Positions 18,446 through 58,546 of a stretch of DNA of 64,000 bases are shown one piece after another. The first letter of the stretch is position 1. The number at the start of each line of letters is the position of its first letter. Where the stretch lies: contig OZ017804.1 in the NCBI GenBank assembly GCA_963969395.1, positions 8,742,001-8,806,000 of the forward strand, written 5' to 3'. Under the pieces are notes generated by a model. That model made no database searches, was not told the DNA's origin, and worked only from the letters and a program-made list of their open reading frames with translations. Position numbers and translations under genes: made by a program. The DNA is from Pseudoscleropodium purum (lineage: Eukaryota; Streptophyta; Bryopsida; Hypnales; Brachytheciaceae).

Positions 18446-19733
18446 TTCTAAAATCAGTCAAGTTTTAGAATTAATCCCTAATGATTGGGAAGCCTGTATT
18501 GGGCATTTCCATCTTTTGTGTAGGCCATTATAAATTGTTTTTAGGGGAATATGTGTTGTGATACTAGCATTCTTGTGCTCTAATTTGTGTCCAATTCAAC
18601 CAAGTAGATATTGAAGTAATAGGTAAAATTTGTTTTGGATCTCAACACAAGCAACTAAAGACAATGTATTTTGATCATTTTTTTTAATCCAACTATAACA
18701 TCATATAGCTAATTCATTGAAGCATATTGTATTGAAATTTCAAAGAAGCAAAGTTCATTGATTATAAAATATTTACTTTGAGATTTTGAGACTTTTTTTT
18801 AATACCATTTTACTTGCATAATTCATCTTTCAAATTTTTTGTAGTAGATTGCATGTCTCTAACAACTTGTGCAAGTTGATGAATTGATTTAAAAATTAGT
18901 TGAAAATCCACGGTGAGAATTAAAAGGATGAAATTAGACATAACTTTGTAATCACTTATCCAAATTTTATAAAATTTGGCTTGCATTCCACTCTGTAGTG
19001 GGAAGAATTTTTTGGGGGTTCCTTGTTCAAATGTTGAGTTGTCCTTAGATGAAGTTCATCTTTATTAAAATCAGCACCCAACTTAAATCCTTTTAAATAT
19101 GTATAGTAGTTTGTTGATGACATGAATGCTCAGATATAGTCATCTATAAGTGCAACATACAAGTTAGAACGTCAACTTTCTGAACATTTGGAGCCACTTA
19201 TTGTAGATTGTTTAAGCAAGATTATAAGAAGGTATCTTTGTGAATTTGTCCAAGTTTAGGTCTTGAAATTAGACAAGGCAATGAGTGGTGAATAGGAATG
19301 TATTAGATGATGTGAAGATGTGAATGAAGTCAACAATGTTCAAAGGATCTTTGAAATTTAGTGGTAATTTGAGAATCCTATATTTTCAAAAACCTAGGAT
19401 TTCAAAACTTCAATTCAATTTTGCAACCATTTACACAATTTTAGAGAAAAATCATAGGAACTCCTTGGCATTGAGGAGCCTTTATTTTACTAATACTCGC
19501 ACTTGATTTTACCCTAAAGAAACAATTATGAACACTTTTTATAATATTTGATAGATATATCATCTCCTTCTTCTACAAAGAGAAAAAGCTCTTTGAAAAT
19601 GGCTGATTGTCTTGATTTATCAACTTAGAAGTGGTAGAGGTTTGAACATTTAGGATTGTAGTATTTGTTTTGCTTTAATTGCATTACAATTTTCAAATTT
19701 TCAGTTAGTAAGTAGAGCTGATGCTAAAAACTG
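18446..19733. other. AT-rich spacer left of the TIR element
   Basis: No supported exon or RNA gene was seen. The 60-codon frame at 19324-19506 shows no domain. Confidence 0.4.
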
Positions 19734-19755
19734 ATATTTAACTAATTATGGACAA
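19734..19755 (+). repeat. left terminal inverted repeat
   Basis: It begins atatttaactaattatgg and matches the reverse complement of 32808-32829 over 22 bases. Just inside it, tatggacaaatccatagtcc forms a small hairpin-like motif. A related copy of that motif (tatggacaaattcatagtcc, read from the right end inward) follows the right terminal repeat. Confidence 0.85.
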
Positions 19756-19935
19756 ATCCATAGTCCAGAAATAAATCGGCCATCAGCCGATATAGTCGAA
19801 TGCATAGATTTGTGTGTCATAAGCAATGAACAGAAATGGACGCAACCACTAAACAAACCAAAGTACCACAACACACGGCAAGTTATTGAGTTCAGAGCCT
19901 ACAATTAGTAGTTAAATGAATAATTTCATAAGCTC

Positions 19936-21016
19936 CTATGCTGTGTCCAAATTTGGAACAAAGTATCGGTTGGCGCCTGATACTGCCAACCGATTCCTAA
20001 CATCATTCTCTAAAGCACCTAGATCTATGAAAGTGTTTGCACTACGTAAACTATGAAAATCGACTATGGCAGCCATCTGTAAGATGAAGAGCAACGAATG
20101 CTCCTCCTTAAACCCTAAACCCTGAGTCCATCCGATCCAATGAACTGAATTGCTCATATCAGCTGGCAGCCGATATCCCCCCCAGAAAACTCCAGAGAAC
20201 AGGTCTTGAAGTGAAAAGGCAGTCGATTCGATAATACTGGCGTTGACAATAAAGCCGTTCAAATTTGTGAATAAGGTAAAGGGGACGAGATTGGAAGGTA
20301 TTTAAGCCCCCCCCGATTCCACTCTGTAAGGGTATCGGCTAGCGGCCGACACCATGTAGGGCAAATCACCAGAATATCCCATTCCAGTTTGGCTTCCCGT
20401 ACTTGATTGACTATGCAACCTCATAGTGTAATTGTCCCGGTCTGATTGCGCCTTTCATGTATTCCGAGACTGACTCATGCTCGTGCATGGGATAAATGAA
20501 TGGAATAATATCCGTTGAAATGTTCGGAATAACTCTACTAATATTCGGGAAATTGAGATCCCCCGTAAATGGTAGTGGAATATAGCACGCCGGATCCAGC
20601 GTCCTCCTGAGCGAAAGCGGGCACACATCGACCATGAGCACTTGGTCCGTGAAGCATGTCATCCTGGATGGTCTCTTAGTGTGAAGTATTGAGAGCATTT
20701 TGTAGCACCACGGGAAATTCTGGCTATCTACACAGTACTCTCTGCCATAAACGAACGCTAGGTTGTCTCTGACATGTTTTGGAAGCAAGTGCGCAAGTAG
20801 AGGCCTAAGATCCACTATTGGCATCCTGGACCAAATTCCTACGTGGAACTTTTCAAACAGTGTCATGAACATTGCAACTAGCCCTGGCCTTTTAATGACA
20901 TTTTTGTGCGGGTCCGACTTGTCCACCTCGATATTCGGGTCGAGATAACAAAGTAGTCCCGTGACGCATAGAACCACACATTTCTTGAACGACTGTGGAT
21001 GGCCCACGTTGGACTC
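19936..21016 (-). pseudogene. transposon-borne FCP1/NIF-phosphatase-like protein, downstream member
   Basis: The better exon is 21016-20420 (199 codons), entered through an acceptor after ttctgttcag. It contains segments in the order of the FCP1/NIF HAD phosphatase fold: KKCVVLCVTGLLCYL, where the DxDGT nucleophile motif would be, then IKRPGL, FHVGIWSRM, YKMLSILH and FTDQVLMVD. Both catalytic Asp positions look replaced (CVTGL), so activity is unlikely. A donor after tatgag and an acceptor before ATGGCTGCC would add exon 20076-19936 (47 codons, ending TAG); that intron holds two palindromes. The start is unresolved: upstream translation runs through the palindrome at 21091. It may be a 3' continuation of the neighbouring gene or a separate paralogue. 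The assignment rests on motif order only. Confidence 0.5.
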
Positions 21017-24000
21017 CTGAACAGAACATGAGTTAGTAGCTACAAGATTATACAACATCAACATCCATTGAAAGAAGACAAGCCAATTGATATCGGCTGG
21101 CAGCCGATACTGCGGCCTGACACACGACAACAGCCAATAATTCATATTGAGAAACAAACAAAAGGTGCCAAATAGATTGTGCACAGATGAGTGAATGCCT
21201 GCACCTACATTATTGCGATCACTTGATTAGAATGACCAAGACCTAATGCTGAAACTCTCAAAGGAAACATTTGAATGCTTTGAGAGAGTGTTCCATGCGC
21301 AAGCTTTAGGAAAAATCGGACTGAAATGCCTTCATTACAAGAAAATTGATTAATCAATACAAAAGAAAATAATGTACACAAAAGATTTAGTCTCTAGACG
21401 TCCTCCTTTATCTACAGAGAATATATACAATCTACAGAAATATGTGTCGGCTGGCAGCCGATACACTACGCCTCCTCCATTAGGTCCCGTGGGCTAGGAA
21501 CTCCCATGGCCTGCAGCTCCTCCAGTGAATATGGCACCTCGAATCCCTTTTGATATGGCGGTGTCACATTCACGAACTGATTATGAAGAGGAGAGCCCGG
21601 CATACAGTGTGCAATCCCAACTAAAGAGTTCTTTTGACAGAACTCTGGGACCTTGAGTCCCGAAGACAAAAACCGTTCAATGAACGGGATGAGCGTCGCC
21701 TGGAGATAAGGCAGTTTTCCACCCTTCAGCGAACTCTCCGAATACATAGTAACCGGGAGTGGATGAATCGCACTATATGGCTGATTCAAAATGTTCCGAT
21801 AGGGCTCGTGATCCACGATCAATGAGTTGTTGATCGTGGCCCCATTATCGTACAAGGAGGATGACCCGAGAATCCTTGCGAGACGCTTCAGAAAAATTGG
21901 TCGTGTGGGATTCTGAGGGTCTCTATAAGCACTCTCGTCATAGTACTCCTGTCCAAAAGCCAGGTAATCGTCTCCGATATCCGGCGCCATCCATTTCAGG
22001 TTATGAAGACGTTGCTCAAGAGTCTGCTTGGGTAAATGCGACCAATAAACGATCTGAATGTCCTGACCCTTACAGAACCTGATGAACTCCTGAAGACCTG
22101 GTCGAGGTCTTACTTGCGACCTCTAATGCATACTTTTCCCTTTAAAAATGAGGGGCTCATAGAAGAGCAGAGTTCCCTGAACCTCAAGGAAAAGAAACAA
22201 CTTCGGAGTTGCTACCTGAGATGGGCCAGCACTAGACGTTTTCCCTGCCCTTTCTTCTAGAGCTGGTTTGTCACACTCCTGCCCACCTTCAGACGTGGTG
22301 GCGGGGAATTTCTCAGAAGATTTGGAGTCATCATCTGCATTGCAAAACGAAATACATAGAGCATGAGAAGCAATGAACTTAGGTACATGACAAAACATTC
22401 GTCCACCGTATCGGCTGGCAGCCGACACAGTCCATAAGTACTCTAGTCTGCCGAGATGAAGGCTCCTATTGACAAGTCTACGCACAAGTCTGAGCCAGGC
22501 AGTGCTACGTATACATGAGCTATTTTAGATACTCCACAAACATCGCAGAGCATGTCTATCGCCTACGAACCTCCAGTCTGAGCCTGCCTCTGAGATCGAG
22601 CGGGAGACATCGCTTCATTTGGGAAGTCCTGTTCCCGGGCCGCCGCGCCACCGTCTTCCTCGTCACTCGGTCGTTTCCGCTTTTGCTGAACCCGAGTTGA
22701 CCTTCGCAAGTCCGCCGACTCCGACTCCTTTTCGAGCGTGGCCCCCTTGCTTCTTCCCTGTCGTGGTTCAGGCGGGGAAACCACCATGGGTGTCGGTTGG
22801 CAGCCGATACTAATGTCAGCTGCAGTAGCCAGGCGGCCCATTGCAGTGACTCCCACTTGAGGCTCTGTCGCAGGACTGACCACTAGAGCCTGTGGAATCC
22901 TGCGAATCTCCTCTGACGGTGGTTGAACGTGCAAGTCCACGATCATTGCGACCGATGAATTTCCCGGTCGGAGCATCCCGAGCGGCTCCGAATTTGGAGC
23001 CGGGGGGAGATTGAGAGAACGCCGCGGAGATGAAAGACTTCGTTGCCGCTGCCTTCAAATGAGTGTCTCTCCCGGGGGGCCATCACTGTTTGAGTCAATT
23101 AGAAACGTCTGAATTGCTGATCACTCCTGAGACTGACCATGTGGCCGTCTCGGCGCCACCGCGCCACTGGGAGTCTCCGTCAGATTGAGGGTCGAGATCG
23201 GCCGCGGTTGCTGATGTGATGCTGTAGGCGACACTTGCCCCGATCCGCTTGCGCCCCCCTGGTCTGTCAGCGCAGGCATCCCCGAAGAAGGTCCCAAGGA
23301 AGCCGAGGAGACGAGGTTCATTCCCCTCACATGTTCTGTGGCCTTCTGCAATCCGTCCTCCTCCCGAACGAACTCCATGACGGCCCGCCCATCCCTCTAC
23401 GAAGCCATGGAGTACAAGTGAGTAACATCTTGTATCGGTTGCCAGCCGACAGGATTTCACTTCCTTTGAACAATGCAAATGTGAGGAAGGGATAAGAAAA
23501 CTTACTAGAGCGATCTCCGTGATGTTCCCGCCCCCCCAAATGTTGATGACAGTGGCATCCTTGGATTTTAGGGTCGGCATCATCAGTTTCTCTAGAAGTC
23601 CATGACCAACCCCGCACATCCCGCCATTCTAGTCGACCTCGCCCTCAACGTCGACATTGAACTAGTCGGGCGCCTTGTTGATCCCAGTAAAGCGCTTGAA
23701 GACCAGGAAAATACTGGACCTGTCCTCGGGCTTCAGAAAGGTCAAGGACAGAGTGACCAAAGGCATGGATTCAATCTCCGCCTTCTGAAAGCCTCCACGG
23801 GGAGATGGTTGATAGTACACCGAATGGTAGTACCAGGAGGACGAGGACGAGTACGAGGCCGTCGAGACAGAATCTCGGAAATGCGAGTTCCCGATAAGGA
23901 GCATTGGTAGGGGGATGTACGCTTCGGTCTCTTCGATATTCGGACCGTCCACCTCAAGGATTTCAGCGGCCAATGCTAGATTGAGCAGATCATTCTTGTT

Positions 24001-24867
24001 CACTGGAATCGGTTCTTCCATATCTATATACCCAAAGAGGACAATGAATTTTTTGTCCTCAGGTTCCAGCGCCATATTCCCCTTCGATTGACGGACGAAG
24101 TCAACCACCTCAGGAATATTCTCTCCGATATAGCATTCGTATTTCAGGTCGGCGGACTTCCCACGCGTCGGAGGCATTTCGACTTTGGCGTAGTTCGCCA
24201 ACGTCGTGAAGAAGACCCCCGGCGCCTTGCCATCCGTCGACTTGTCTGTCGTTGGATTCATAGGATTCACTCGCCCCTTCAACCAGTTGTTGGCGTCCGT
24301 GAACTTCATCATGTCCTTCCAAACGTTTCGAACTACGGCCGCTGAGTACCCCTCCTTATTAGCAAGCTCCATCGAATCCTCGTCAGTATATGGGGTCTAA
24401 TTCTGGTCCTTGCAGGGAAGAGGATGCTTCTTCCTGGTCCACATGATCTCGTTCATGACGATTCTGTCCAGCTTTTTGTCCTTGCACCAGTCGAAGAGAG
24501 TGATCTTCCCCGAGGACTTGGCCTTCACGGTGTTCTTGATGCTCACGCGAAGTGCAATGATCTCCCGCCCTAGCTCGCACAGATCCGAATCCCGAAGCCC
24601 CAACGTTGGCGTGAGATCCGTTTTGGTGATGTGAGTGAGCGGCTTCCGATTGACGAGGAGATTCGACACAGTCCCATCATCTCCAATAAGCTCCCCGTTC
24701 TCCCACGCATCGAAGACCTCCATCCATAGCACCCAGGTGGTCTCCTTGATGAAGATGAGGGGCAACTTGGAGGACACCTTCTCATCCACGAAGTGCGCCA
24801 TCACCTTCAGCTTCGCATCCTGGAGGAGTTCCACCGCAATGTTTAGAACATGCGAGAATGGTATCGG

Positions 24868-24931
24868 CTGCCAGCTGATACATAATATATTAATCAAAAG
24901 GGAGAAAAAAATAAAGGTGCGTGGGAATTAC
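24868..24931 (-). other. 64-nt intron whose 3' splice site lies inside a palindrome
   Basis: The donor is GAG|gtaattccc. A T-rich tract follows, then tatcagctggcag|CCGATA, so the last 13 intron bases and the first six exon bases are one palindrome copy. The reading frame continues (CCG ATA CCA, P-I-P-F-S-H) in phase. An alternative acceptor 48 bases further on (ctcctccag|GAT) is also in phase. Confidence 0.55.
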
Positions 24932-25195
24932 CTCAAATGCTGCTGATGGCTTTCCACCTCCACGATGCGGCTCTGGGCACCCCGCCTGCACCCACGCCGC
25001 TCTTCCCATCTCTACGTAGGATCTGAAGGTCTCCTTTGCCACTTTCTCCGCGATGTTGAGATTGAGGGCATTGGAGACTCTGACGAGTGTGTCCGGGTCT
25101 CTACTGAATATCGGAATGACCTCGAACTCCAGGAGGTCGGTTTTGGCTTCAGAGCCGTCCAGATATTGCTCGGCCAATTCTCGACAGGCCGTCAC

Positions 25196-25210
25196 TGTGT
25201 GTTGCCCACC
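25196..25210 (-). other. ParB/Srx-like GGQHT box
   Basis: The translated motif GGQHT is preceded by HWYII and followed by VTACRELAEQ. This is the arrangement of the ParB/sulfiredoxin signature (a Gly-x-His-Arg/Thr turn followed by an alanine-containing helix). In this fold the box binds nucleotide. It lies at about residues 68-72 of the second exon. Confidence 0.5.
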
Positions 25211-26398
25211 AATGATATACCAGTGGACATTTGGCGCCTTCCACCACGGCATTGAGATGCCGTCGACAACAACAGTCTGTTCCTTCCCGGGACACTTGTC
25301 CATCACGGCGTCTAGCCCTTTGTCCGTTGGCAGTGGAGCTTGCTTTAGAGGAATCCCATGGATTTCCGGCTTCTTCCTGATGGACCCGTATCCCTTGTAC
25401 ATGGTCTTCACCTGAATTGAGAGAAGGCCAAAATATTAAAGACCAGCTACAGATGTCGGCTGCGAGCTGATACATTATATGGGAAGATAAAAACCAGTAA
25501 AGGATGGAAGTGATCGTTGAATTACCTGGCCAAGTCGGTCCTTTGCAATCTTCCGGTACTTCAACTCATCCAGTGCAATGTGGAATTTGTCCGAGTGAAT
25601 GACCCCCGGAAGATGCTGCTTTTTGTAAGGAAACACGTGCAGGAGCCCCGTTTCCAACGCGTGGTAAATAGCGTTCACCTCGTTCTCCTTCGTCTTGGTT
25701 GTGAGATGATTTCCATGCCGGAGTGCCTCGTCGAGTGTCAGCTTCAGCGGCTTGTTGGGGTCGTCCCTGGCCTTTGCTTTTCTCTTCGGTTTGCTGGGCG
25801 ACCCGGTCTCCTGCAGATCAGTAGCAGCGACTTCAGTCACTCTCGCCGCCACTTGCTTCCTCGCCGAGGGTACCTTTTTCTTCCCCTTTTCCAACTCACG
25901 AGCGATGAACGCATTGTGTTCATCGCGCTCTATCTTCAAGCACTCCCAGCCCTGGATGAGGTCCTCTACACTAGACGGTGTGTTTCCCTCGAACGTCATG
26001 CCCATCGACATTGACTTCTCTCCACAGACCTCCTCCGTGCACTTGTTCACTGGCAACTCCACCACGAAATAATCGGCAACTCCATCCGTGCTTCCCAGTG
26101 GCATCAAGTATATCATGACGTGCATGGAATCGCCAATAGCCATGACGGACAATACACTTCCTTTGCTAGGGGTCATGTTCCCTTTCAGCTTGAAGGAGCA
26201 TACGATCTCCACTGTCGTGTCGGGTAACTACCTCCAACACAGACCCCATTCTTGGATGGCCTCAATCGCTCGCCATGTTGCCCTCGGTGGATACCCGTCT
26301 CCCAATATCCGAGAGTTTGGGATTTGCTCACCCAGAAGGCGGGCCAAGAGAGTCGGTTTCCTACAGAACAATACAATTGAATTCTCCGTACACTTACA

Positions 26399-27955
26399 CT
26401 ATGCACCTTCACTTTGTGCATCCACTGTATCGGCTGCTAGCCGATACAACCTCTCAGTCCCTAAACCCTATCGTCGGAAGACATTTCTAGAAATTCCTAA
26501 GTCAACCGTCCCGGGATCATATCGGCTGCCAGCCGACATAGCTTAAGCTCAGGCTCCTAGTGAGTGCTGCAATGTATGTCGGCTGCCAGCCAATATAGCA
26601 AGTAATAGGTGCCTCAGAATCTCAATGGCTATCCTATATGATATAGCAAATGACAGTGTATCGGCTGGCAGCCGATACATGTAGTGAAAAGTACCTCTCA
26701 GTCGCCAAATCGGAGGATGCCATCGCCAATGGACTCTGTCGCTTATCGGCTACTAAAGATGACTTGTCGGCTGCTGAAAAAGCACGCTTGCCTCGCTCTC
26801 CTTCACTGTCGGCTGGCCAGAAATGTGTATCGGCTGCGCTAAGATGTATCGGCTGCTGCTTTGCTTTGCGAGGGGATGTCAGCTACAAGCCGGACTGAAG
26901 GAGGGAGAATTGCAGAGTGAGAGTGAGTGAGGTTGAGAGTGAGTGAGTGAGTGAGAGTGAGAGTGAGTGACAGAGAGAGAGCAGGAGACGCAAATGGCAA
27001 ATGAGAGAAAATGAAAGTGGCCAGGGGTGTATACCTCCTAAACCCTCGGCTGCCAGCCGGTAGGCGCAATCATGACAAACCGAGTCCGTTCTTCCATAAA
27101 TTTCATCCATCGCAAGTTTTCATCCGTTAGCATGTATTCCACATCCAGCAAAGTACATGGAAGTTACGAGCACTCATTGCAGAGATGCGTACGTTTCCCA
27201 ACACGATCTCCCGATGCACGGACTTGTCTCTCTTGCAATCACCACAACTTCATCCTCTTCCAGATTCAAATTTCAAGCGCCAAATTCAATTTCAGGCTTG
27301 CTCACCTAGGATCAAATCTTGGAGGACTTCCATGTTCATTTTCATTTGCCCCACACACGCACTCAGAGCGTCCAAGAACCGTCAGGGAATTGCAGTGGCT
27401 TGTTGTGGAATGTTTATGAGGGATGCAACATGATAGGGAATTCAGTAGACCTCAGTTCAGTGCAGCATTGAGTAGTCTCCGGGTTCAGGAAGCGCTCTTC
27501 GACAGTTGTTATTTGGCGTTTAGGCTTACGTAGGATTTGTAGTGGGATTTGAATTGCTCCAAGCTACATTTGAATTGCAATAGGAATCTAATTGCAGTAG
27601 TAGTCAGGAGCATTCTCGGAAATTAGTTGCTTGACAGAGGTTTAGGATTTCCTATTTGGTTGCACATGTGTTTCCATTTCATTATTTTTACTGGTCAGAG
27701 CATCTGTGGATAGTGCCTAGATCATAGAAAGCGCAAAATCTAGCTTCGTGCATGATCTCCAAAGTTCTAGCTGTACAGTCTTGCCTCTGTACTTGACCGT
27801 ACGGACAGTGGTATCAGCTGCCAGCCGATACCAATTTCTGTACCAAGAAGGTCGTGAAGCACCAGGTACACAAACATATCGGCTGCCAGCCGATAAGGTC
27901 ATCATGGGTCTGACAGAAATTCCGACATTGTGGATTCTGACTCCGATTTCAAATC
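26399..27955. promoter_or_regulatory. divergent promoter region of the transposon with clustered palindromes
   Basis: It lies between the 5' ends of the leftward and rightward genes. It holds seven full palindromes (26428, 26520, 26577, 26659, 27045, 27812, 27877) and a run of half-sites (26741-26893), the densest group in the block. This is where regulatory binding sites would be expected. A GAGTGA-type simple repeat lies at 26905-26985. Confidence 0.55.
26905..26985 (+). repeat. GAGTGA/GAGAGT simple-sequence tract
   Basis: The tract consists of repeats of gagtgagtgagagtgagagt followed by gagagagag. It is a purine-rich microsatellite inside the divergent promoter region, on the 5' side of the half-site cluster. 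Confidence 0.8.
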
Positions 27956-30900
27956 ATGAGTGGATCTGATGACTGGACATCGGGTGCGAGTCCTATTGAG
28001 GCATTCACGAAAAATGGAGGCTTGGGAAGACTGAAAATGCAGAAGGGAGTTGTTGTGGCTCTTACACTAGAAGGATTATACTACTCCAGAAGGGCGGTCG
28101 TAGAAAGGGTGGTGAGCCGCGATCCCTACCTCGTACGCGTTCATGTCCTAGACGTTCCAAATAACCTCGATATGCCTCTTCCGTTTCCTGAGGGAGACAT
28201 GGTATTCCTGCGACACTGCCTGGGAAGGTCAATCGTGTGGGAGGCAAAGAACATCTATCCCCATGCAAAGTCTGAAGGGTCTTCTTCTGCTGGTGTCGGC
28301 CGGCAGCCGATACAAGTGGTCACAGATGAAAAACCCATACAACAATTCCTGTCACTCACTGTCAATATGGATGTCTCACTATTGCAGACTATGGGCACGG
28401 ATCTACTGTATGCTGGTGTAGGTACAATTGTACAATGCTCTCCGAAGGGTTACTGGAAGGCTTTCGCGTTCCACACAGCTTCTTCCTCGTTGTGAAGCTA
28501 CTGCACATCGTCGATGATTTCCAGGATCAGAGTGCTTATTGCGAGATTCCTGAATTCATGACACTCAAACGCTGTGTTGGATTCAAAATACTTTGGAGTG
28601 GTTATAAGGTCAGACCAATCGAGACCTCCGTCCCAATAACCAAGGTTGTCGGCTGCCAACCGACAAGAGAACCTGCAACCCATTTCATGCAGGCTCAAGT
28701 CGATGGTAACTACGAGAGTGGTGGGAGTTCGAACGATGTACAGGTAGAATTATGTGATCCGGGAACACAGCGAGTACTTCCTACTGCATCAGATGAAGAC
28801 GAGCGAGATGATAGGCTCTATTCGTCCGACGATGACAGTCGCGGGTCTGCAGAGGATCACCGCGATGTTCATGGTTACAGTACCTCTGGCACTACCGTGT
28901 CCGACACAAGTGTTGCTGACAGCATGGATCATTCGGACGCGTTTAGAGCTGATACTCAAAGTGGAGATAATGGCCATCCAGATGGAATGCAAGCTGGGCT
29001 TCCAATCCCAGATAGACCGCTCTGGAGAAATCAATACTGTGAACTTCTCAATGACGACTTCTCGGTTCTCGGAAGAGCCATGATCCAAGTCTGCCTACCA
29101 GATGAGACCTGCGATGATGGCGTCCTGGGCGACACGGATGTCGGGGTCATGTTCGTATCGGACAATGACGAACTGCAAATGACAACCATGTGCTGGAGGC
29201 TCACAGACACAAGGTTGGAGGGTGGAAGGCTACTATCTGAAATTGTCATGCTCTGCTCAGAGGCTGCTCTATTGAATGAGTCGGACGATAACAGAATGCA
29301 GGGGGTACCGAGGAATCCATACCGCTTTGTGTGCAGAAGGGTGATTCCCAAGGATCACGAAAGCCAATCTAGGCTGCAAATGAAGACTTCAGAGACGGAG
29401 GTACGTAAGGTCAGCTCACAGAAGTGCTGTAAACTCAGATACTGCCAAACGTTTCCCTGGGAGGACACGAGGTCTATACGACGAAAGCTCTTCGCTTGCA
29501 CATTCGAGAGTAGGAGGGAGGTAGCGTATGCGGTGCAGAGTCAGCTTCATGCAGGGGTTATTCCAGGAAAAAAATTCATTACTCTTGCAAATACAGACGT
29601 CTGCGAGAACGCATGGTATATCATTCATGGGGTATCGAGGTCGGCCTATCATGTTTACAAGGTTGCGACCGTGGGAGGATCCGTTAACGGCTCGCATGGA
29701 AATGCGGGGGCCCGACGGCCACGGCCACAAACAATCCAAGCTCCAGCAACCCTCAAAACAATCATCGACGACAATGCCGACAAAATGCCAAACGAGTTCA
29801 GAATGGTTGGAAATAAACACGTCGACAATCTCAAGGTCCTCCCCTCTGCAATGAATTGGGATCACATGCGCGAACAAGTCAATTATGTAAGTCCATCATC
29901 TGCCTCTTCGTCTATAGTAGAAAAGTCCTTTTATCGGCTGCCAGCCGATACAATCATGTCTGGACTTTGAATGTAGAAGCCAGTGATCTTTCCTTTCTAT
30001 AGGCCGTCATTTGCAATTCTGTCGACTGCCAACCGATACAACTCTATAGTCTTCCATGAAAACTCATCCATGAAGTCATGTTCTTCAGGTCAATGGAATA
30101 TGCAATATGAAGCCGGTCTTGCAGTCTGCTATCAGCCGCCTTCGGAATGCTCATTTCAAAAATGTAGAGGTCAAGGCCGTAGGGAGCAATTTCTCAAAAT
30201 GTACAGAATGTGACTTCCTGGTAGAGTTCATTGCAAAGTATCCAAGAGGTTGTGATGAGTGGCAGGCCCTGGTCGACGACAGAGAGAGACATCTCAATTA
30301 CCAGCGCGCTTGTAGAAATGTATACAGTGGATGGACCGCGCAGTCGGTGCAAAATCCATCAGAGTTCCTCTACATTATTCATGACAAAATGGACACCACA
30401 AAGACTGCCATTCCGAGGATGTAGTGCATCACCAAGGCCACCGCAAGGCTAGGGCAAATACTAATCTCGTGTACTGGAATGCTCACACATGGACATGGAG
30501 ATGGCGCATATGCACATTACTCCACATCACTCTGGCTTGGGGATTCAAATTTCACAATTTTGTCCATTTGCAAGGTCCTCAGGGCCCTAGAACTACCACC
30601 TGTTCGGGAGTCCAAGATCCTCTTCTCGACTCCACCGCTAAACACCTTCTTCGAGGCTCTGCTTCATGGGAAATCGAGATGCAACTCGTCAATCCTGTAG
30701 GCCTCGGACATGGTGATCGACGCAGCGAGATCAAGACGACCTCAGGTCCCACTTCCGAGGAAACTATTCTTGCAACTCGACAATTCAGCAAAGGACAACA
30801 AAAATCGATTCCTCATGGCTTTCTACTCACTGCTCACTGCCAGGCGCATATTCAAGGAAGTTTCAGTGGGGTTCCTTATTGTCGGGCATACGCATGAGGA

Positions 30901-32107
30901 CATTGATGCGCACTTCAGTTATTTCTCTAAATTGATCAAAAGGAAGAACACATACGTACTTGCGGATCTCATGAAGGCGTTCATGGATTCACAGAAGACT
31001 GTAGCCTTCATTCCGGAGTTCGTGCAAGAAGTGGCAGACTTCAAATCATACTTCAAGGGCTTCCATCATGATGGGGTGAACAAAATCATCGGGCTCGGAG
31101 ATAAACACCTCTTCAAGTTCTACGTCGTGGAGGATGGTGTGGATCGTGGATGGCCGGTCATGAGGTACAAGCTCAGGGCCACAGATTCTTCGTGGCTGCC
31201 TCCTGGCGCACTTGTCAAAATGTAGACAGCGGACGAAAATGGACAACCCAATATTCCACAGGGGGACCCTCGACCTGTGCCTTTCAAGGCACTCTGGGGG
31301 AATGTGGACATTAATACCAGAAGGCGAAATGCAGAAAAAGAAGTTGCAAGGGCTACAGAGTGCAATGAGAAACAGACATTCATCAAAAACAGAATAGCAA
31401 AGTTCATTGAGTTCTGGAAATCGGGAATGGCCAGAGATAGACGGTACGCACAGGAAATGGCAGGCTGTGTGGCTTACTGGGAAAGAATTCAATCGGAGAT
31501 CAATTCGGCACTGCCTCAAACTCCTACATTGCTTCAAGAAGGATTATGGCTGCTCTCTGACTGGACAAAAGATCACACGTCGACTTTTGTAGACAAGGGG
31601 GCGGAGGAGAATTATTCAGTAGACACTACTCCGGAGGACGAAGGGGATTCCACTCCATACTGCGGACTTGCAAAAGATAGGCCGCGCTTGAGATTCAATC
31701 CATTCAGGGATGTTCTGCTCAGAGACTTTGTTCTTTATCGACCATGTCACAACAATCATCTGCCTGTCTGGCTGGGACGGGTACTCCAATGTGTGGACAT
31801 GTCTCCGGGGCCCACGTATGGTAATTTTAAAATTGAGTGGTGGACTCCGATGAAAGCCAAGAGGGAGTCAAAAGCGCTCATTGCGAGGGAGTGCTGGACC
31901 CGAAGATGGCACAAGGAACTTTGTCTTCCGCAGATGGTCCATGTCAACATTGTCTTGTACTCGCACAGAATGCCCTCGCATGCAAAGAAAGGACCTCCCA
32001 CATCTCATGTCATCCCGGAGGCATCCGTTGCTGCTGCTATTGTGAATCTGGAGGCCGCGGGGGCAGCTTTAGACAGAGATGCAGACGAGGGCGGAGAGGA
32101 TTACTAA
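27956..32107 (+). pseudogene. putative transposase-like protein (DUF7869-type motifs) of the 13.1-kb transposon
   Basis: My exons are 27956-28417, 28525-29886 and 30089-32107, phase-compatible, totalling about 1,280 codons from ATG to TAA. The first intron (107 nt) is the least certain; a frameshift is the alternative. The conserved core is in exon 3: THGHGDGAYAHY (from 30485), QLDNSAKDNKN (30773-30805), then SVGFLIVGHTHEDID (to 30907) and FKALWGN. As I remember them, these are the hallmarks of the DUF7869 family, which recurs in multicopy plant and animal proteins. The spaced D, D/N and E/D residues would suit an RNase H-like nuclease, so transposase is my inference. In-frame TAG codons stand at 30422, 30698 and 31223, with clear coding continuity on both sides of each. 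Palindromes lie in exon 1 (28294), exon 2 (28647) and intron 2 (29932, 30020). Confidence 0.7.
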
Positions 32108-32141
32108 CATATCGCCTCGGACCTATCGGCTGCCAGCCGAT

Positions 32142-32807
32142 ACAATAGTTTAGCTCTGGAGTTGTGTCACCATCACATTGCTAGACGGATCCGAGTCCTC
32201 GCTGTAGGTGTCGGCTGTCAGCCGATACTAAGGGCTTCGCTGCATGTCGATCGCATGGTTCTTGAACAAGATGTTTTCACTTCAGGATGATTACATGCAT
32301 ATCCACAATATTTACTCATTTGTGGATGTGCCTTCATATCTTTTAGGGTGTGCCTTCATATCTTATAGATTGTGACTATAAGTCTTATGACTAGTCTGTT
32401 TTGACATTTTTAATATGTATCCGTTGGCTGCTAACAAATCACATTTATTTGAATCTCCTATGGGGACCATGTTACAACTGTTTTATCTTCAGTGCACAAG
32501 CGATTTGCTCATTTCTCTATCTTTCATGTTCGTTGTCCTGCTTTTTGGTTTTGCGCACTTTACTGTGCTATCTTATCAGTTGCCAGCCTATATGTCAATG
32601 GGCACAGGATGGGTGCACAGTCATAGGCACCGGTTCTGCTATTGCATAGAAACCGGTCCAAAATACAACAATCCACTTTTTTTTTGTACCCTCGGTTCTT
32701 CTGAACAAGGTGTGGGTGGGCTACCGACACTTTTTAATCATTTGAAGCATGTTCTCTACCTTTTTTAATGTGGCTATGGACTATGAATTTGTCCATAGTT
32801 TGTGCAA
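32142..32807. other. right subterminal region of the transposon
   Basis: It is non-coding, with palindromes at 32209 and 32573 (the second decayed). Close to the end, tatggactatgaatttgtccatag is a subterminal motif shared in inverted form with the left end. Confidence 0.55.
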
Positions 32808-32829
32808 TTGTCCATAATTAGTTAAATAT
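32808..32829 (-). repeat. right terminal inverted repeat
   Basis: It is the perfect reverse complement of 19734-19755. Read inward from the right edge, the tatggacaa word occurs twice, once in the repeat and again about 20 bases further in, so the right end carries one extra subterminal unit compared with the left. Confidence 0.85.
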
Positions 32830-35800
32830 AGGTTTAAACCATTTCATTTATTAAAATCCAATTATTTTATTTGGACTTTTTGTACCTAGAAGTTACCTTT
32901 AGCACATTCTTGTCAAATAATTAAATAAAGTGATCATTTAAATTATCATTTCTAAGAAATTCAGTATCAATAGTTAAAATATCAATTTTTTTGGAAAAAT
33001 TATTCTAGTATGACAAAATGAGATCTAAAGTTTTACATTGAACACAATTCTTGGGTTTTGACAATGAGTAGTCAAGCCCTCATCTTCAAATTGCCCTATA
33101 CCCTTTAAGAATTCATAATGAATAATGGATTTCATTATTAAGATGACCTATCCATCTTTAGGATACATGTGTTGGCATCAAGTTGAATTGATATCTTTTC
33201 TAGAACTTCAAATTTTTGTACAAATAGTTTGTTTTTTATTTGGCAAGGTCACTTACTTATTAATTTTCAAAATCATTTGGCATTGAAAATTTTCATTATT
33301 TTAAATTGTAGAAGTTGACCTCTGAATAAGGTACTCATGAATGCAACTTTCTTCTATTTCAATAGTTTTTACATCAAAGCTATATTGTGTGTGAACTTAG
33401 TTTGATTAAAATTATAACAATTTTCTATCTATTGGAATCCAATTCCAAGAACTAGACTTTTCTAGAAAATACAATTAAAATGTCCCCATGTTGAATTGTG
33501 ATTAGTTGATTGTTCATTTTTTTAATTTGGGTTGCATCACTAGTCTATTAAATAGTTTTAGTGGTCTACAGATCTTTGACTTTCAAAAGTCATAGTAATT
33601 TATAATAATTCATGATTTTTAATTGCTCATACTTCATAAATATTTTTAGAAGATCCATCCTAGATACTAGTCAAAATATATTTGCCATTCATTGGTTTCT
33701 AGAATACACCCTAAACCACAGGTAGTTCGATAAGGGATAGGTCCCCTCATTTTTGTAGTTGCATACAGAAATAGTATCCATGTAAACCATTACTAACAAT
33801 GGTCTCCCTAATTCAATGGATGTAGGATTCAATTTATTGGGAATAATTTAAATAGGAACCCTTTCCCTTCAAACTCACTTGACATTTTCACGAAAATAGG
33901 TTTGACTATGCTTTCATTCATCCAAGAAATTGCCATAACTCAAATTTATTATTTTCAAAATCTGCACTTATAGGATCAAACAAAAAATAAAAATACAATA
34001 TCTATAGTTTTAACTACTTATTATTCACTTAATTACATTCCTATGCATTTTAGACAAGAATTTGTAGGGGTCTTTTTCAATACATATTGCAATCACGTAC
34101 AACTTGTTAATCTTGTAGTGTTGTGGAATATTCAAAGTGTCCAAAAATGAGAAACAATAATTTGATGTTTGAAGACCACATTGATGCATCTATTTTTTTG
34201 GGATTAATTTTAATACAATGAGCCTATCATTGAAGTAGTCATCCAAAAAATCATACTCTCACAAGATGAATAATCACATTCTTCATATCTATATGAACTC
34301 TTTGAAATTCATTCATTGGACACTTTTTGCCCTTTGCAACATTTCAAGGTTAATGATTCTCAATAGTCTCAAAGACAATAACTACATGTCTCATACTCTC
34401 ATTGCTTAATAACAATGTATGTTAGAGTTGAATTAAGAGGAAATCTAGCTTTCTTCCCTCCTAATCTTTAATGATTTGAAGATGATAAAAAATTGAGACT
34501 TTAAAATTTTGGATTTCTCAAAATCTTGCCCTACCTTTAACCACTAAGATTTTAGGGTAGAGAGATGGATCATGGATGTAAATTTTGAAATATTTGGCAA
34601 AATGTATTATAATAAGAATAGAGTACTACGAGTAGACTAGTAGAGACATCAAATCTTCAATTTTGCAAATTTTCATTTCTTTTGCATCCCTACATTAAGT
34701 CCTTTAAAACCTTGCACAATAACCATAAAGTATCAATTGACTGTTGTAATCACATTGTTAAAAAATAGACAAAACTTTTTTTTTTCAACATACGTGGATG
34801 CACTTCATCCATTTTCCATAGCTCTGGCAATATGTCAGTTCTTGAAAATATGAATAATCCACATAGTGGATGTTCGCCCTTTGAGGGGTTAAAGTTATGA
34901 ATGACCATGGAAAAATATTATTTTTTCAAATTATTGTATGTGTAGGTTTGATTCAACACTTAGGTGCTGAAATTGAATTTCTACATCAAATTCACACAGT
35001 CCACTTCGCCTCACACCATTCACAAGATGACATGTGGCACTTTTTTTTACAAAAATGACTTAATTTCTGCCAAATCTGACCTTCACGTAGAGTAGCTCAT
35101 CACTCAACTAATTTTCTGAACTGAATCATCTCATTTACTAAGCTACTCCCTGACTTCCTAAATTAAGACTGCAGCGTTGACTTCCTTAACGAGGTTCGCT
35201 TCCATTCGCCATACCAGCGCTGCTTCGGTGCTTCCTAATCCCCCCTTGCCCAAAGAGCTGTTGACTTTAGTTCCATTTCAGATAGTAACTGAAGGTCAAC
35301 TCCGATCTTTGTTAACCCCAACACGGGTGCTCAACCTTTGGCCCGACGACTCTGACGTGCAGCTGGGAAGCCGATTACCTGGGATTCGTCGTTTGGTATG
35401 AATCTGCTAAAACTAATTAAGGACTGGAGTCTAGCGTAAAAGCTACGAAAAGGCCAAGAGAAATCCCCAGTTCCGGTCCAGTTGAGGATCATTTTCTGTA
35501 AACATGCACGCATTGGTTTTAATTTTTGCAATGAAGTCTACTTTCATTTGTATAAAATTTTCATAGTACCAAGATGCCTTGCAGTGTTATACCTTGCTAC
35601 CTTGCAGTATACCTTGCAATATTATAAACGTTAATTTCGTTAAATTGACACTATTCCATGCACTAAAAAATTGTGACATACACATCTTCTCACAGGTTCA
35701 ATTTCAGGCCACAAACTACTGCAGGTATAGATTTTGTGTTCAGGCTGCGCGTTCTGCATTGCGTCAAACTAATGGAACATCGCCAATTTAATGAAATTGA

Positions 35801-55864: not shown

Positions 55865-58546
55865 TTAGTCGTCATCACTGTCATCAATGTTCACAAGGTC
55901 TTGCAACATGCGGTTTTCCCACATGGTTGCTTTGATCTGGCGGAGCTCTTCTATGTCTTGCCAAAGGCGATTGTCAGTGACTAGTTTATTCTCTGCTAGT
56001 AGTGCCCGGCACCCTACACACCACCACGACTAGAGCATTATGGACAAAGTATGGTTTTCTTGTGAGGACAAAAGACAACGTTGTCTTCATTGTGGCATAT
56101 GCTTTTGTTCCAAAAATCCCTTCAGAAGAACCCCCAATAAGACTCACAAAGTTTTTAATGTTAGCATTAATCTAAAAGGAATGTTTGAGAGTCTTAGGAA
56201 TGAATAATAGTATACTTTTGCTAACATAGTGTTGACATATATACCATTAATACCATTTGCATTAACATCAACTCAAACTCTCAAAGTGAGGACTACAAAT
56301 CTAATATCTATTAGCTTGTCATTTATAACTTTGTCAAACTAAATGATAGGGCTTTTGAGATGATGATGGTGTGAATAAGGTCGGTGTACCTGGAGATGCA
56401 CACAGGCAGAATCCGTCTTTTGCCATGCTTGATATGAAGTTCAGAGCTGATGATCGGTCGTATATATGTTCACATTCTTCACTGCATCAAAATCAAACTG
56501 AGATTCTGTCAAGTGTCTGAAATCTTTCCACAAGTCTTACCTCTGTCAGTCAAAATAAACTAGCATTTAAAAGGATATTAAGCATGATGATCTCTTTTAC
56601 AAAAAACTTGAGTAGAATAAAAATCTACAATAATCTTCTATGGAGTTGCCATCATCTAAGGCTTAAAATCATGTCCCTTTAAAGTTTCGGCTTTGTTTGT
56701 AGAAGTGAACAACTGCTCCTTATGAAGGTTTGCATTTGCATAACTAGAGATCAAACGCAACCTTTGCTGCATTGGAAGTAATGAGGAAAGGAACAAAAAG
56801 CACAGAAAAAATGCAACCTGCGAACTGGGTCTTCAAGATCAACCACTGGAATCCCGCTGACAGGACAAACAACATTAAGCACCGAATATGAAGAGTGTGT
56901 CATATAAACATCATTTTCGTCCCCTTCGTCTATTTGTTTTCCTGCTTTCCGGCAACAACACTACACCCCAAAAAAATATTCAATTGTTGTCCTGAAGAAC
57001 TTAGATCTTTTCATGAACAATTTCCACAATTCATTCGATTATGAACATCTGTAAACAGTCAACTCAAGTTACTTCCTAAAACATGACACAACAAAGATGA
57101 TAGGTAGCGCTTGATGAATCCAAGCAACACCTGCCAATGTAGGAGGGTCTAGTATCAGAAGATAATGCTTTATAGATGAAGAGAGCTGTCAAGAGATGAC
57201 TTCATATACAAGCGCCAAATATGTTGAGATCAAACTTTATCACGATGTATGAATTTCTTCAGCAATCATTCAAAATGAGAGATTGTAGATCACTATTTCC
57301 ATTAAAAAGGGACAATAAATCCCATTTCCATTAAAAATAATTAGTAGCCATAGACAGTTAGAGAAGTCAAGTTTACACCTAACTAGCTAATAAACCCAAC
57401 CAAGTGTAAAAACAAATTCGTTGGTGGTGGTGCCAGGGTCAGAATGGGAGACGAGATCAAATCCCCAATCATTTTATTATCCTCTACGCTACATGAGAAA
57501 CCAAGCCATACCTGGCACCCAATGCTACCCTCACGATTAGTGTACTCTTGAAGCTCCGACAATCCCTCGTCATCGTAAGCCAAGTCCTTCATTGCGTTTC
57601 TCACATTTGGGGGTCGAAGTTGCGACTTCACATCCTCGTCAAGACTTGAATCACCTGGGCTGCAAATGGAAACTTCGCCAAGGCTGTTGATAACTCCATC
57701 TATGGTGGTTCTCGCTGCACTAGTCGAGGAGTCGATGGTATCCTCATTAGCAACATTATGCGTTGCTGTTACATTTCTTGCTATAACGGTGGCGCTGCGA
57801 TCGACGTCTTTACCACCATCATAGCTATTTCCAACTGTTTCCCCTTGTTCCATCTGATATTTGATGTCACTCCCATCAGTGATATCAGATGCCTCCCCTA
57901 ATGCACAACCCGCATACATCTTCTCTTCCTCCTCCAGCCGCTTCTTCAACTCGACAAATTCAGAATGCTTCCTTGCCCTACTTTCATCATTTTCTTCCAC
58001 ATTGACACCTTCTAGCACAAACTTGACGTGAAAATCCTGGAGAATCTTCTGTTGTCGCTCGGTCAACCTGTCCTGAATCTCTCCCACTTCCTTCTTCACC
58101 AGGGCCGGTTTCACTAGAGCTCCTTCCACGCCCTTGCGTTTCAGAGCAATTCTACTAATGGACACGTCTTGCTCTACGTTTGTTTTCAGATTTTCATTAG
58201 ACTCGGCTTCTTCTGCTACAATGTCAACTTTGGGCTTCTCCAAGGGACTATCATCCTCTCGGATCACCGACTTGGAAACTCGGAAAATTTTGACCTCATC
58301 ATCAACGGGATCCTCGACAAGAGTCGGTCGGTCTATGGATTCATCAGATACCACTGGCAAAATATCTTTCCTAAGCAAGCTCTTGTCTTCCTCCTGGGGC
58401 AACCGTAACATCTGAAGTCCATCCAGATCCTCTGACTTCGTATTGTCGATCTTCGTCTTTGTATCTTTCTGATTTTGGTCTGTAATCGAGTCCTCCATCT
58501 CACCGCTTAAGTTGCCCATTTCTCCACCCAAATCCTCCATTGACAT
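55865..58546 (-). CDS. SP-RING SUMO E3 ligase, NSE2/MMS21 (HPY2) type
   Basis: NSE2/MMS21 is the SUMO ligase subunit of the SMC5/6 genome-maintenance complex. My exons are 58546-57512, 56960-56818, 56481-56390 and 56013-55865, all GT-AG and in phase, giving 472 residues. The SP-RING is assembled only after splicing: VCPVSGIPVVDLEDPVR (376-392), CEHIYDRSS (Cys396, His398) and CLCASPGC (Cys420, Cys425, the C-x4-C pair of MMS21). It is followed by LLAENKLVTD and an acidic end, IDDSDDD. Exon 1 (345 codons) is acidic and unfamiliar, with a probable coiled coil around RQQKILQDFHVK to LKKRLEEEEK (about 165-215). Plant HPY2 is only about 250 residues, so this N terminus is unusually long. Exon 1 could instead belong to another gene. 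A spliced 5' leader is likely (59925 donor, 58640 acceptor). Confidence 0.75.

What the first reader, a model, noticed from the sequence alone, without database searches (positions are those of the whole stretch)
19776..32591. About 25 copies of one 19-bp palindrome confined to the transposon
TRTCGGCTGSCAGCCGAYA recurs on average every 500 bp inside the block and I noticed none in the other 51 kb. It is densest in the divergent promoter (26428-27062) and also lies near both ends. Such density of an odd palindrome is far beyond chance and suggests a binding site for an element-encoded protein, analogous to the subterminal TNPA sites of CACTA elements but spread over the whole element.
Basis: partly seen in the sequence, partly recalled or inferred. 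Interest (0 to 1): 0.9.

Follow-up and report, generated by a model that had tools for sequence, protein, structure and literature searches.

The report
Family-specific palindromes in related transposons
A 13-kb plant jumping gene carries about 25 copies of one 19-letter DNA palindrome, and three of four related jumping-gene families sampled in the same genome carry their own differently spelled version in the same layout, which suggests that each family makes a protein that recognises its own DNA.

Summary
Confirmed. TRTCGGCTGSCAGCCGAYA occurs 23 times (<=3 mismatches), all inside one DNA transposon and not elsewhere in the window. The element spans 19729-32834, with 27-bp inverted ends, a 4-bp target duplication and a DUF7869 transposase. 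The 313-Mb host genome holds 1074 exact palindromes; the reversed control holds none. The 50 places listed lie in copies (48) or short fragments (2) of this element. Positions are conserved between copies, and a majority vote gives 17 of 26 sites exact against 8 in the window itself.

The decisive result is comparative. Of four other DUF7869 families read (7 kb of one locus each) in the same genome, three carry their own repeated 19-bp palindrome in the same frame, TATC-N5-S-N5'-GATA; one shows none. Read-through ORFs of relatives elsewhere, one a named moss, fit the signature in 66 of 250 proteins.

Best reading: binding sites of an element-encoded, family-specific DNA-binding protein, working like VANC/VANDAL or TNPA sites. 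Binding, the protein's identity and any effect on silencing are not shown. New variant of a known kind.

The parts
19729..32834 (.). whole DNA transposon, 13.1 kb
   Evidence: ends set by alignment of genomic copies and TSDs
19729..19755 (+). left terminal inverted repeat, 27 bp
   Evidence: shared by copies; its 18-bp core occurs 123 + 120 times in the genome
32808..32834 (-). right terminal inverted repeat, 27 bp (differs from the left at two positions)
19725..19728 (+). target-site duplication TAAA, left
32835..32838 (+). target-site duplication TAAA, right
19774..20351 (.). palindromes at 19774 and 19964 (4 mismatches each), 20157, 20333
21091..22809 (.). palindromes at 21091, 21445, 22409, 22791
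23433..25472 (.). palindromes at 23433, 24862, 25454 (the last two in putative introns of the minus-strand gene)
26428..26677 (.). palindrome cluster 26428, 26520, 26577, 26659 in the divergent promoter region
27044..27895 (.). palindromes at 27044 (3 mismatches), 27812, 27877
28294..28665 (.). palindromes at 28294 and 28647 inside transposase linker coding sequence, read as VG..P[IT]; [IV]G..P[IT] recurs in relatives
29932..30038 (.). palindromes at 29932 and 30020 in the putative transposase intron
32124..32592 (.). palindromes at 32124, 32209, 32574 near the right end
27956..32107 (+). transposase gene (limits putative); this copy carries internal stops and a frame change
   Evidence: tblastn with relatives; stops
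30704..31222 (+). DUF7869 (PF25273) region of the transposase
   Evidence: Pfam E 5.4e-35
24905..26212 (-). accessory gene (limits putative) with conserved WYIxGGQHT motif, ParB-like by eye only
   Evidence: 64 relatives, alignment; Pfam did not confirm ParB
21466..22380 (-). FCP1-like (NIF) phosphatase-like ORF A
   Evidence: Pfam NIF E 0.0098, below the curated cut-off
20411..21059 (-). FCP1-like (NIF) phosphatase-like ORF B
   Evidence: Pfam NIF E 6.5e-5, 23.1 bits against cut-off 21.8

Best explanation
The palindromes are binding sites for a dimeric DNA-binding protein that the transposon itself encodes. Each transposon family has its own version of the site (near-constant TATC...GATA flanks, usually an S centre, family-specific five-base half-site) and presumably its own version of the protein. 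By occupying dispersed, mostly non-coding sites along the whole element the protein marks only its own family. The likeliest purpose is to lift host silencing and drive element genes, as VANC does for VANDAL elements in Arabidopsis; help in transposition is the main alternative. Shown: the sites, their confinement among the places listed, conserved positions, family-specific spelling in the loci read, and a bias away from coding DNA. Inferred: protein binding, which protein binds, and anti-silencing.
For: Confinement: 50 of 50 listed places (of 1074) in copies or short pieces of the element; reversed control 0. A rarer spelling has 59 places: of the 21 listed places that fall in the range covered by the TIR listing, 19 lie inside TIR pairs and 2 beside an unpaired TIR, all 21 within about 300 bp of the offset of window site 28647. 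Majority of the copies: 17 of 26 sites exact and 5 with one mismatch; the 22 best show independent R/Y half-site freedom, a weak CAA extension and otherwise unrelated flanks, i.e. a binding-site profile rather than a copied repeat. Only 2 of 25 sites fall in putative coding DNA that makes up 59% of the element, P 1.4e-7 with a hand-set mask. Families B, C and E have their own palindromes: 9, 6 and 7 sites at <=3 mismatches, shuffled mean 0. Frame TATC-N5-N-N5'-GATA at <=3 mismatches: 10, 7 and 12 against shuffled 1.3, 1.5 and 1.7. Translated signature in 66 of 250 relatives against a shuffled mean of 0.3, maximum 2, of 100. Precedent: VANC21 binds YAGTATTAY in non-coding VANDAL21 DNA and VANC6 is linked to different motifs (PMC5735166, passages).
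Against: Family D, the closest of the four to the window's element in tblastx, shows no such palindromes in the 7 kb read (2 weak frame matches, shuffled 0.9). Only one locus per related family was read, the motifs scored were taken from those same loci, and motifs B and E cross-match (9 E-type matches in B, 3 B-type and 3 C-type in E, at <=3 mismatches). If coding DNA is taken from protein similarity instead of the hand-set mask, 5 of 26 sites lie in the 40% of the element so covered, a much weaker bias. No known DNA-binding domain in the ORFs scanned. The two structure models are poor and the fold searches of one gave nothing usable. All seven rows examined carry an internal stop or frame change in the part of the last transposase exon that they hold, so nothing shows present function. 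Substitutions are more frequent inside sites than outside (3.9% against 2.2%), and at CpGs about equal (5.7% against 6.4%), so nothing protects the sites in the present copies. The 66 translated hits are not independent, most of the later 35 being one coding peptide.
Confidence: 0.72

Rival explanations
1. Transposition role: the sites are bound by the transposase or a TNPA-like partner to assemble the transposition complex, so that internal DNA is needed in cis. (Overlaps with the best explanation as to binding; differs in purpose.)
For: Of 43 TIR pairs among the 100 listed rows none is shorter than 12 kb (33 of 12.2-13.7 kb, 10 longer), i.e. no internally deleted derivative was seen. TNPA recognises subterminal repeats that are cis-determinants in Spm/En (PMC2613891, passages).
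Against: Sites are spread over the element, not concentrated next to the ends; the site nearest the left end is poor (3 mismatches in the majority). A young burst would also lack deletion derivatives.
Confidence: 0.2
2. Host transcription factor sites: the arms contain GCCGAY, resembling DRE/AP2-ERF cores (recalled), so host factors may drive the element.
For: TGTCGGC/GCCGACA arms at some sites of this family.
Against: The motifs of families B, C and E lack that core; the 50 listed palindromes all belong to one element family.
Confidence: 0.06
3. RNA-level role: the palindromes act as hairpins in introns or untranslated regions.
For: Several sites lie in putative introns.
Against: Sites also lie in the divergent promoter region and outside the genes. 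R/Y combinations at positions 2 and 18 of 22 sites, (A,T) 10, (G,T) 7, (A,C) 4, (G,C) 1 (tallied by eye from the list), show no clear preference for RNA pairing. The palindrome is odd with a one-base centre.
Confidence: 0.02
4. An independent small mobile repeat that accumulated in the element.
For: About 25 near-identical units per copy. Two listed places are short pieces matching the element over 59-77 bp at a time around the 28294 site, away from any full copy.
Against: 48 of 50 listed places are in large copies and the other 2 match the element beyond the 19 bp; no shared flanks around the units; other families have other spellings in the same frame.
Confidence: 0.02

Closest known systems
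VANC proteins and their motifs in VANDAL elements, Arabidopsis (PMC5735166 passages, PMC10398659 abstract)
   Same: Short motifs over-represented in introns and other non-coding parts of one TE family; related families have different motifs; one related family here (B) carries most of its sites in an ~86-bp tandem array, as VANC targets often do.
   Different: VANDALs are Mutator-like (recalled); here DUF7869 transposase, 4-bp TSD, a longer strict palindrome, and sites dispersed singly in the window's family. No VANC sequence was compared and there are no methylation data.
Spm/En TNPA and subterminal repeats of CACTA elements (PMC2613891 passages)
   Same: Repeated element-specific motif, presumably read by an element-encoded protein; motifs diverge between subfamilies.
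   Different: No CACTA ends, TSD of 4 not 3 bp, sites over the whole element rather than subterminal, palindromic.
Bacterial ParB-parS (recalled)
   Same: Palindromic sites; one element protein has a GGQHT motif that resembles ParB by eye.
   Different: Profile, PDB-sequence and fold searches did not establish ParB homology.

Membership tests
PF25273 DUF7869 | domain match above the curated cut-off | tested here: met
   121.2 bits against cut-off 26, E 5.4e-35
CACTA/EnSpm | ends 5'-CACTA and 3-bp TSD | tested here: not met
   ends AAC(C/T)..., TSD of 4 bp in 14 of 15 copies, 3 bp in 1 (5 by eye, 10)
CACTA/EnSpm | motif array confined to subterminal regions | tested here: not met
   sites spread from 19774 to 32592
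VANDAL/VANC system | Mutator-like transposase | tested here: not met
   no MULE domain reported in the ORFs scanned against Pfam; DUF7869 instead
VANDAL/VANC system | VANC protein homologue | not tested
   no VANC sequence was compared
VANDAL/VANC system | short motif over-represented in non-coding DNA of its own family | tested here: met
   non-coding bias strong with a hand-set mask, weaker with a similarity mask
VANDAL/VANC system | related families carry different motifs | tested here: met
   3 of 4 related families read carry their own motif; family D shows none
VANDAL/VANC system | protein binding and loss of DNA methylation | not testable with these tools
   needs binding assays and bisulfite data
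ParB/parS | ParB-type domain in an element protein | tested here: inconclusive
   no ParBc hit in 24 relatives; PHROG 'ParB-like partition protein' in 1 of 24 at E 0.14; fold search inconclusive

The most novel reading that the evidence does not exclude
A diversified self-recognition system: a clade of DUF7869 transposons, probably in mosses, in which nearly every family pairs its own DNA-binding protein with its own palindrome in a fixed TATC-N5-S-N5'-GATA frame, used to un-silence only itself. It would have evolved independently of VANC and would be a readable protein-DNA recognition code.
Probability: 0.42. Interest if true: 0.87.

Novelty: new variant of a known kind. Interest (0 to 1): 0.74.

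Why it matters
Family-specific sites dispersed along a whole transposon are known to me only from the VANC/VANDAL system of Arabidopsis (recalled, and PMC5735166). An independent case in another kind of transposon, with a strict palindromic frame and several spellings side by side in one genome, would show that sequence-specific self-marking by transposons is a recurrent strategy. It would also offer a natural series for working out which residues read which bases, and possible tools for sequence-specific epigenome editing. DUF7869 is a Pfam domain of unknown function, and no paper in the library searched names it.
Full report
OBSERVATION. The motif TRTCGGCTGSCAGCCGAYA matches the window 23 times with up to 3 mismatches, all at 20157-32592; the mean of 100 dinucleotide shuffles is 0. 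At up to 4 mismatches there are 25 sites, from 19774 to 32592, none elsewhere in 64 kb. The spacing is irregular (mean 533 bp, CV 0.96, as for random placement).

THE ELEMENT. Copies elsewhere in the same 313-Mb assembly align to it at 95.0-96.5% pairwise identity. The ends are 27-bp inverted repeats, AAC(C/T)(T/G)ATATTTAACTAATTATGGACAA, at 19729 and 32834. The target duplication is 4 bp: the window's TAAA and four copies by eye, and 9 of 10 further copies (the tenth 3 bp), so 14 of 15; copy E13.25M, whose left end was not in the stretch fetched, was left out. The plus-strand gene matches DUF7869 (PF25273, E 5.4e-35). A 926-residue relative, P0225, is recorded from the moss Ceratodon purpureus. 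The host is therefore probably a moss; this is inference. Minus-strand genes include one with a conserved WYIxGGQHT motif, ParB-like only by eye, and two FCP1/NIF-like ORFs, one above and one below Pfam's cut-off. The window's copy has internal stops and a frame change in the transposase, and all seven rows of the alignment have an internal stop or frame change in the part of the last exon that they hold.

CONFINEMENT. The exact pattern occurs at 1074 places in the genome; its reversed control at none. The tool lists the first 50: 48 lie in six aligned element copies and 2 in short pieces that match the element's 28062-28335 region over 59-77 bp at a time. The rarer spelling TGTC...GACA occurs at 59 places. 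Of the 50 listed, 21 fall in the range covered by the TIR listing; 19 of these are inside TIR pairs and 2 beside an unpaired TIR, all 21 within about 300 bp of the offset of window site 28647. The other 29 listed, and all unlisted places, were not tested. The loose pattern TRTCGGCNNNNNGCCGAYA occurs 1437 times against 1 for the control.

COPY STRUCTURE. The TIR core occurs 123 and 120 times on the two strands. The first 100 rows form 43 convergent pairs, 33 of 12.2-13.7 kb, 10 longer and none shorter, with 14 unpaired. So no internally deleted short derivative was seen among those listed, unusual for plant DNA transposons (recalled) and compatible with a need for internal sequence or with a young burst. 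Differences among copies are mostly C>T and G>A, as expected of methylated DNA.

THE SITES. Of six copies scanned, four complete ones each hold 27 sites at <=4 mismatches, one that is incomplete on the left in the stretch fetched holds 21 and a partial one 12; the aligned positions match those of the window, with decay differing from copy to copy. By majority, 17 of 26 sites fit the motif exactly, 5 have one mismatch, 3 have three and 1 has four; the window itself has 8 exact. For the profile the 4 poor sites (19774, 19964, 27044, 32418) were dropped: in the remaining 22, 42-44 of 44 half-sites agree at every position except position 2/18 (A 31, G 13) and the centre (C or G), and beyond a weak CAA extension the flanks are unrelated. 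Substitutions are more frequent inside sites than outside (3.9% against 2.2%), at CpGs about equal (5.7% against 6.4%), so nothing maintains the sites in the present copies. With a hand-set coding mask covering 59% of the element, 2 of 25 sites are in coding DNA (P 1.4e-7; the mask leaves out the weak ORF around 22791). With a mask from protein similarity (40% of the element) it is 5 of 26, three of them in what I read as introns. The two clear coding sites lie in transposase linkers and encode VG..P[IT]; relatives keep [IV]G..P[IT] there (31 of 39 sequences covering the first place; the second place aligned poorly, 8 of 18, though many relatives show a second copy of the peptide).

OTHER FAMILIES, DNA LEVEL. 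A degenerate DUF7869 signature finds 155 places in the genome (78 + 77) in several sequence classes. None of the four contains the window's palindrome (<=3 mismatches). Three contain their own: family B TATCGTTGASTCAACGATA (9 sites at <=3 mismatches, 8 of them in an array of 85-86-bp spacing), family C TATCCTCGASTCGAGGATA (6), family E TATCTTTGASTCAAAGATA (7); the shuffled mean is 0. The motifs were taken from these same loci. B and E differ by one base per half-site and cross-match at 3 mismatches (9 E-type matches in B, 3 B-type in E), and 3 C-type matches occur in E. All keep the frame TATC-N5-S-N5'-GATA, with a few non-S centres. A scan for that frame without fixing the half-site gives 15 (window), 10 (B), 7 (C), 2 (D) and 12 (E) against shuffled means of 0.7, 1.3, 1.5, 0.9 and 1.7. 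Family D, closest to the window's element of the four, is negative.

OTHER GENOMES, TRANSLATED LEVEL. DNA of relatives elsewhere was not available, but many database proteins seem to read through introns. The 250 proteins are those listed by three searches (120 listed of 307, 64 and 66). Asking which peptides are compatible with a palindrome TRTCGGC-n1-n2-N-n2'-n1'-GCCGAYA gives 66 of 250, against 0.3 on average and at most 2 in 100 shuffles, 0 reversed and 0 for each of five permuted arms. The first 184 alone gave 31: n2 must be G in 18, is G or C in 12 and A in 1, while n1 is T, C, A or G by lineage. Most of the later 35 are one coding peptide, IGGPPI. These hits are not independent, and compatibility is not proof of the DNA.

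MECHANISM. A motif in many single dispersed positions, symmetric, with independent half-site freedom, family-specific in spelling but constant in frame, is what a diverging dimeric DNA-binding protein would leave. The sites recur through several families while flanks and half-sites change, which argues for selection before each burst. The closest worked example is VANC: VANC21 binds YAGTATTAY in non-coding VANDAL21 DNA, motif regions include introns of VANC21 and VANB21, VANC6 is linked to other motifs, and VANC causes loss of methylation (PMC5735166, passages read; PMC10398659, abstract). I therefore favour an anti-silencing or self-activating role (about 0.45 on its own), with a transposition role next (about 0.2-0.25). 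Which element protein binds is unknown; no known DNA-binding domain was found in the ORFs scanned, and the accessory GGQHT protein and the transposase N-terminus are my candidates.

VERDICT.

Noticed in passing
20411-22380: Two FCP1/NIF phosphatase-like ORFs inside the transposon, unexpected cargo for a DNA transposon; only ORF B passes the Pfam cut-off.
   Followed up: partly
20157-32592: The centre base of the palindromes is not randomly arranged: G in the six sites 20157-22791, C in most others (6 runs against 11.1 expected, P about 0.014).
   Followed up: partly
genome G000, TIR pairs: No internally deleted derivative among the 43 TIR pairs in the 100 rows listed.
   Followed up: partly
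26914-26981: GAGTGA-type microsatellite in the divergent promoter region.
   Followed up: no
L046:2152-2771: Family B carries eight palindromes in an array of 85-86-bp spacing upstream of the transposase similarity, recalling VANC target repeats.
   Followed up: partly
57383-58546: A 387-aa ORF on the minus strand outside the element, not examined.
   Followed up: no
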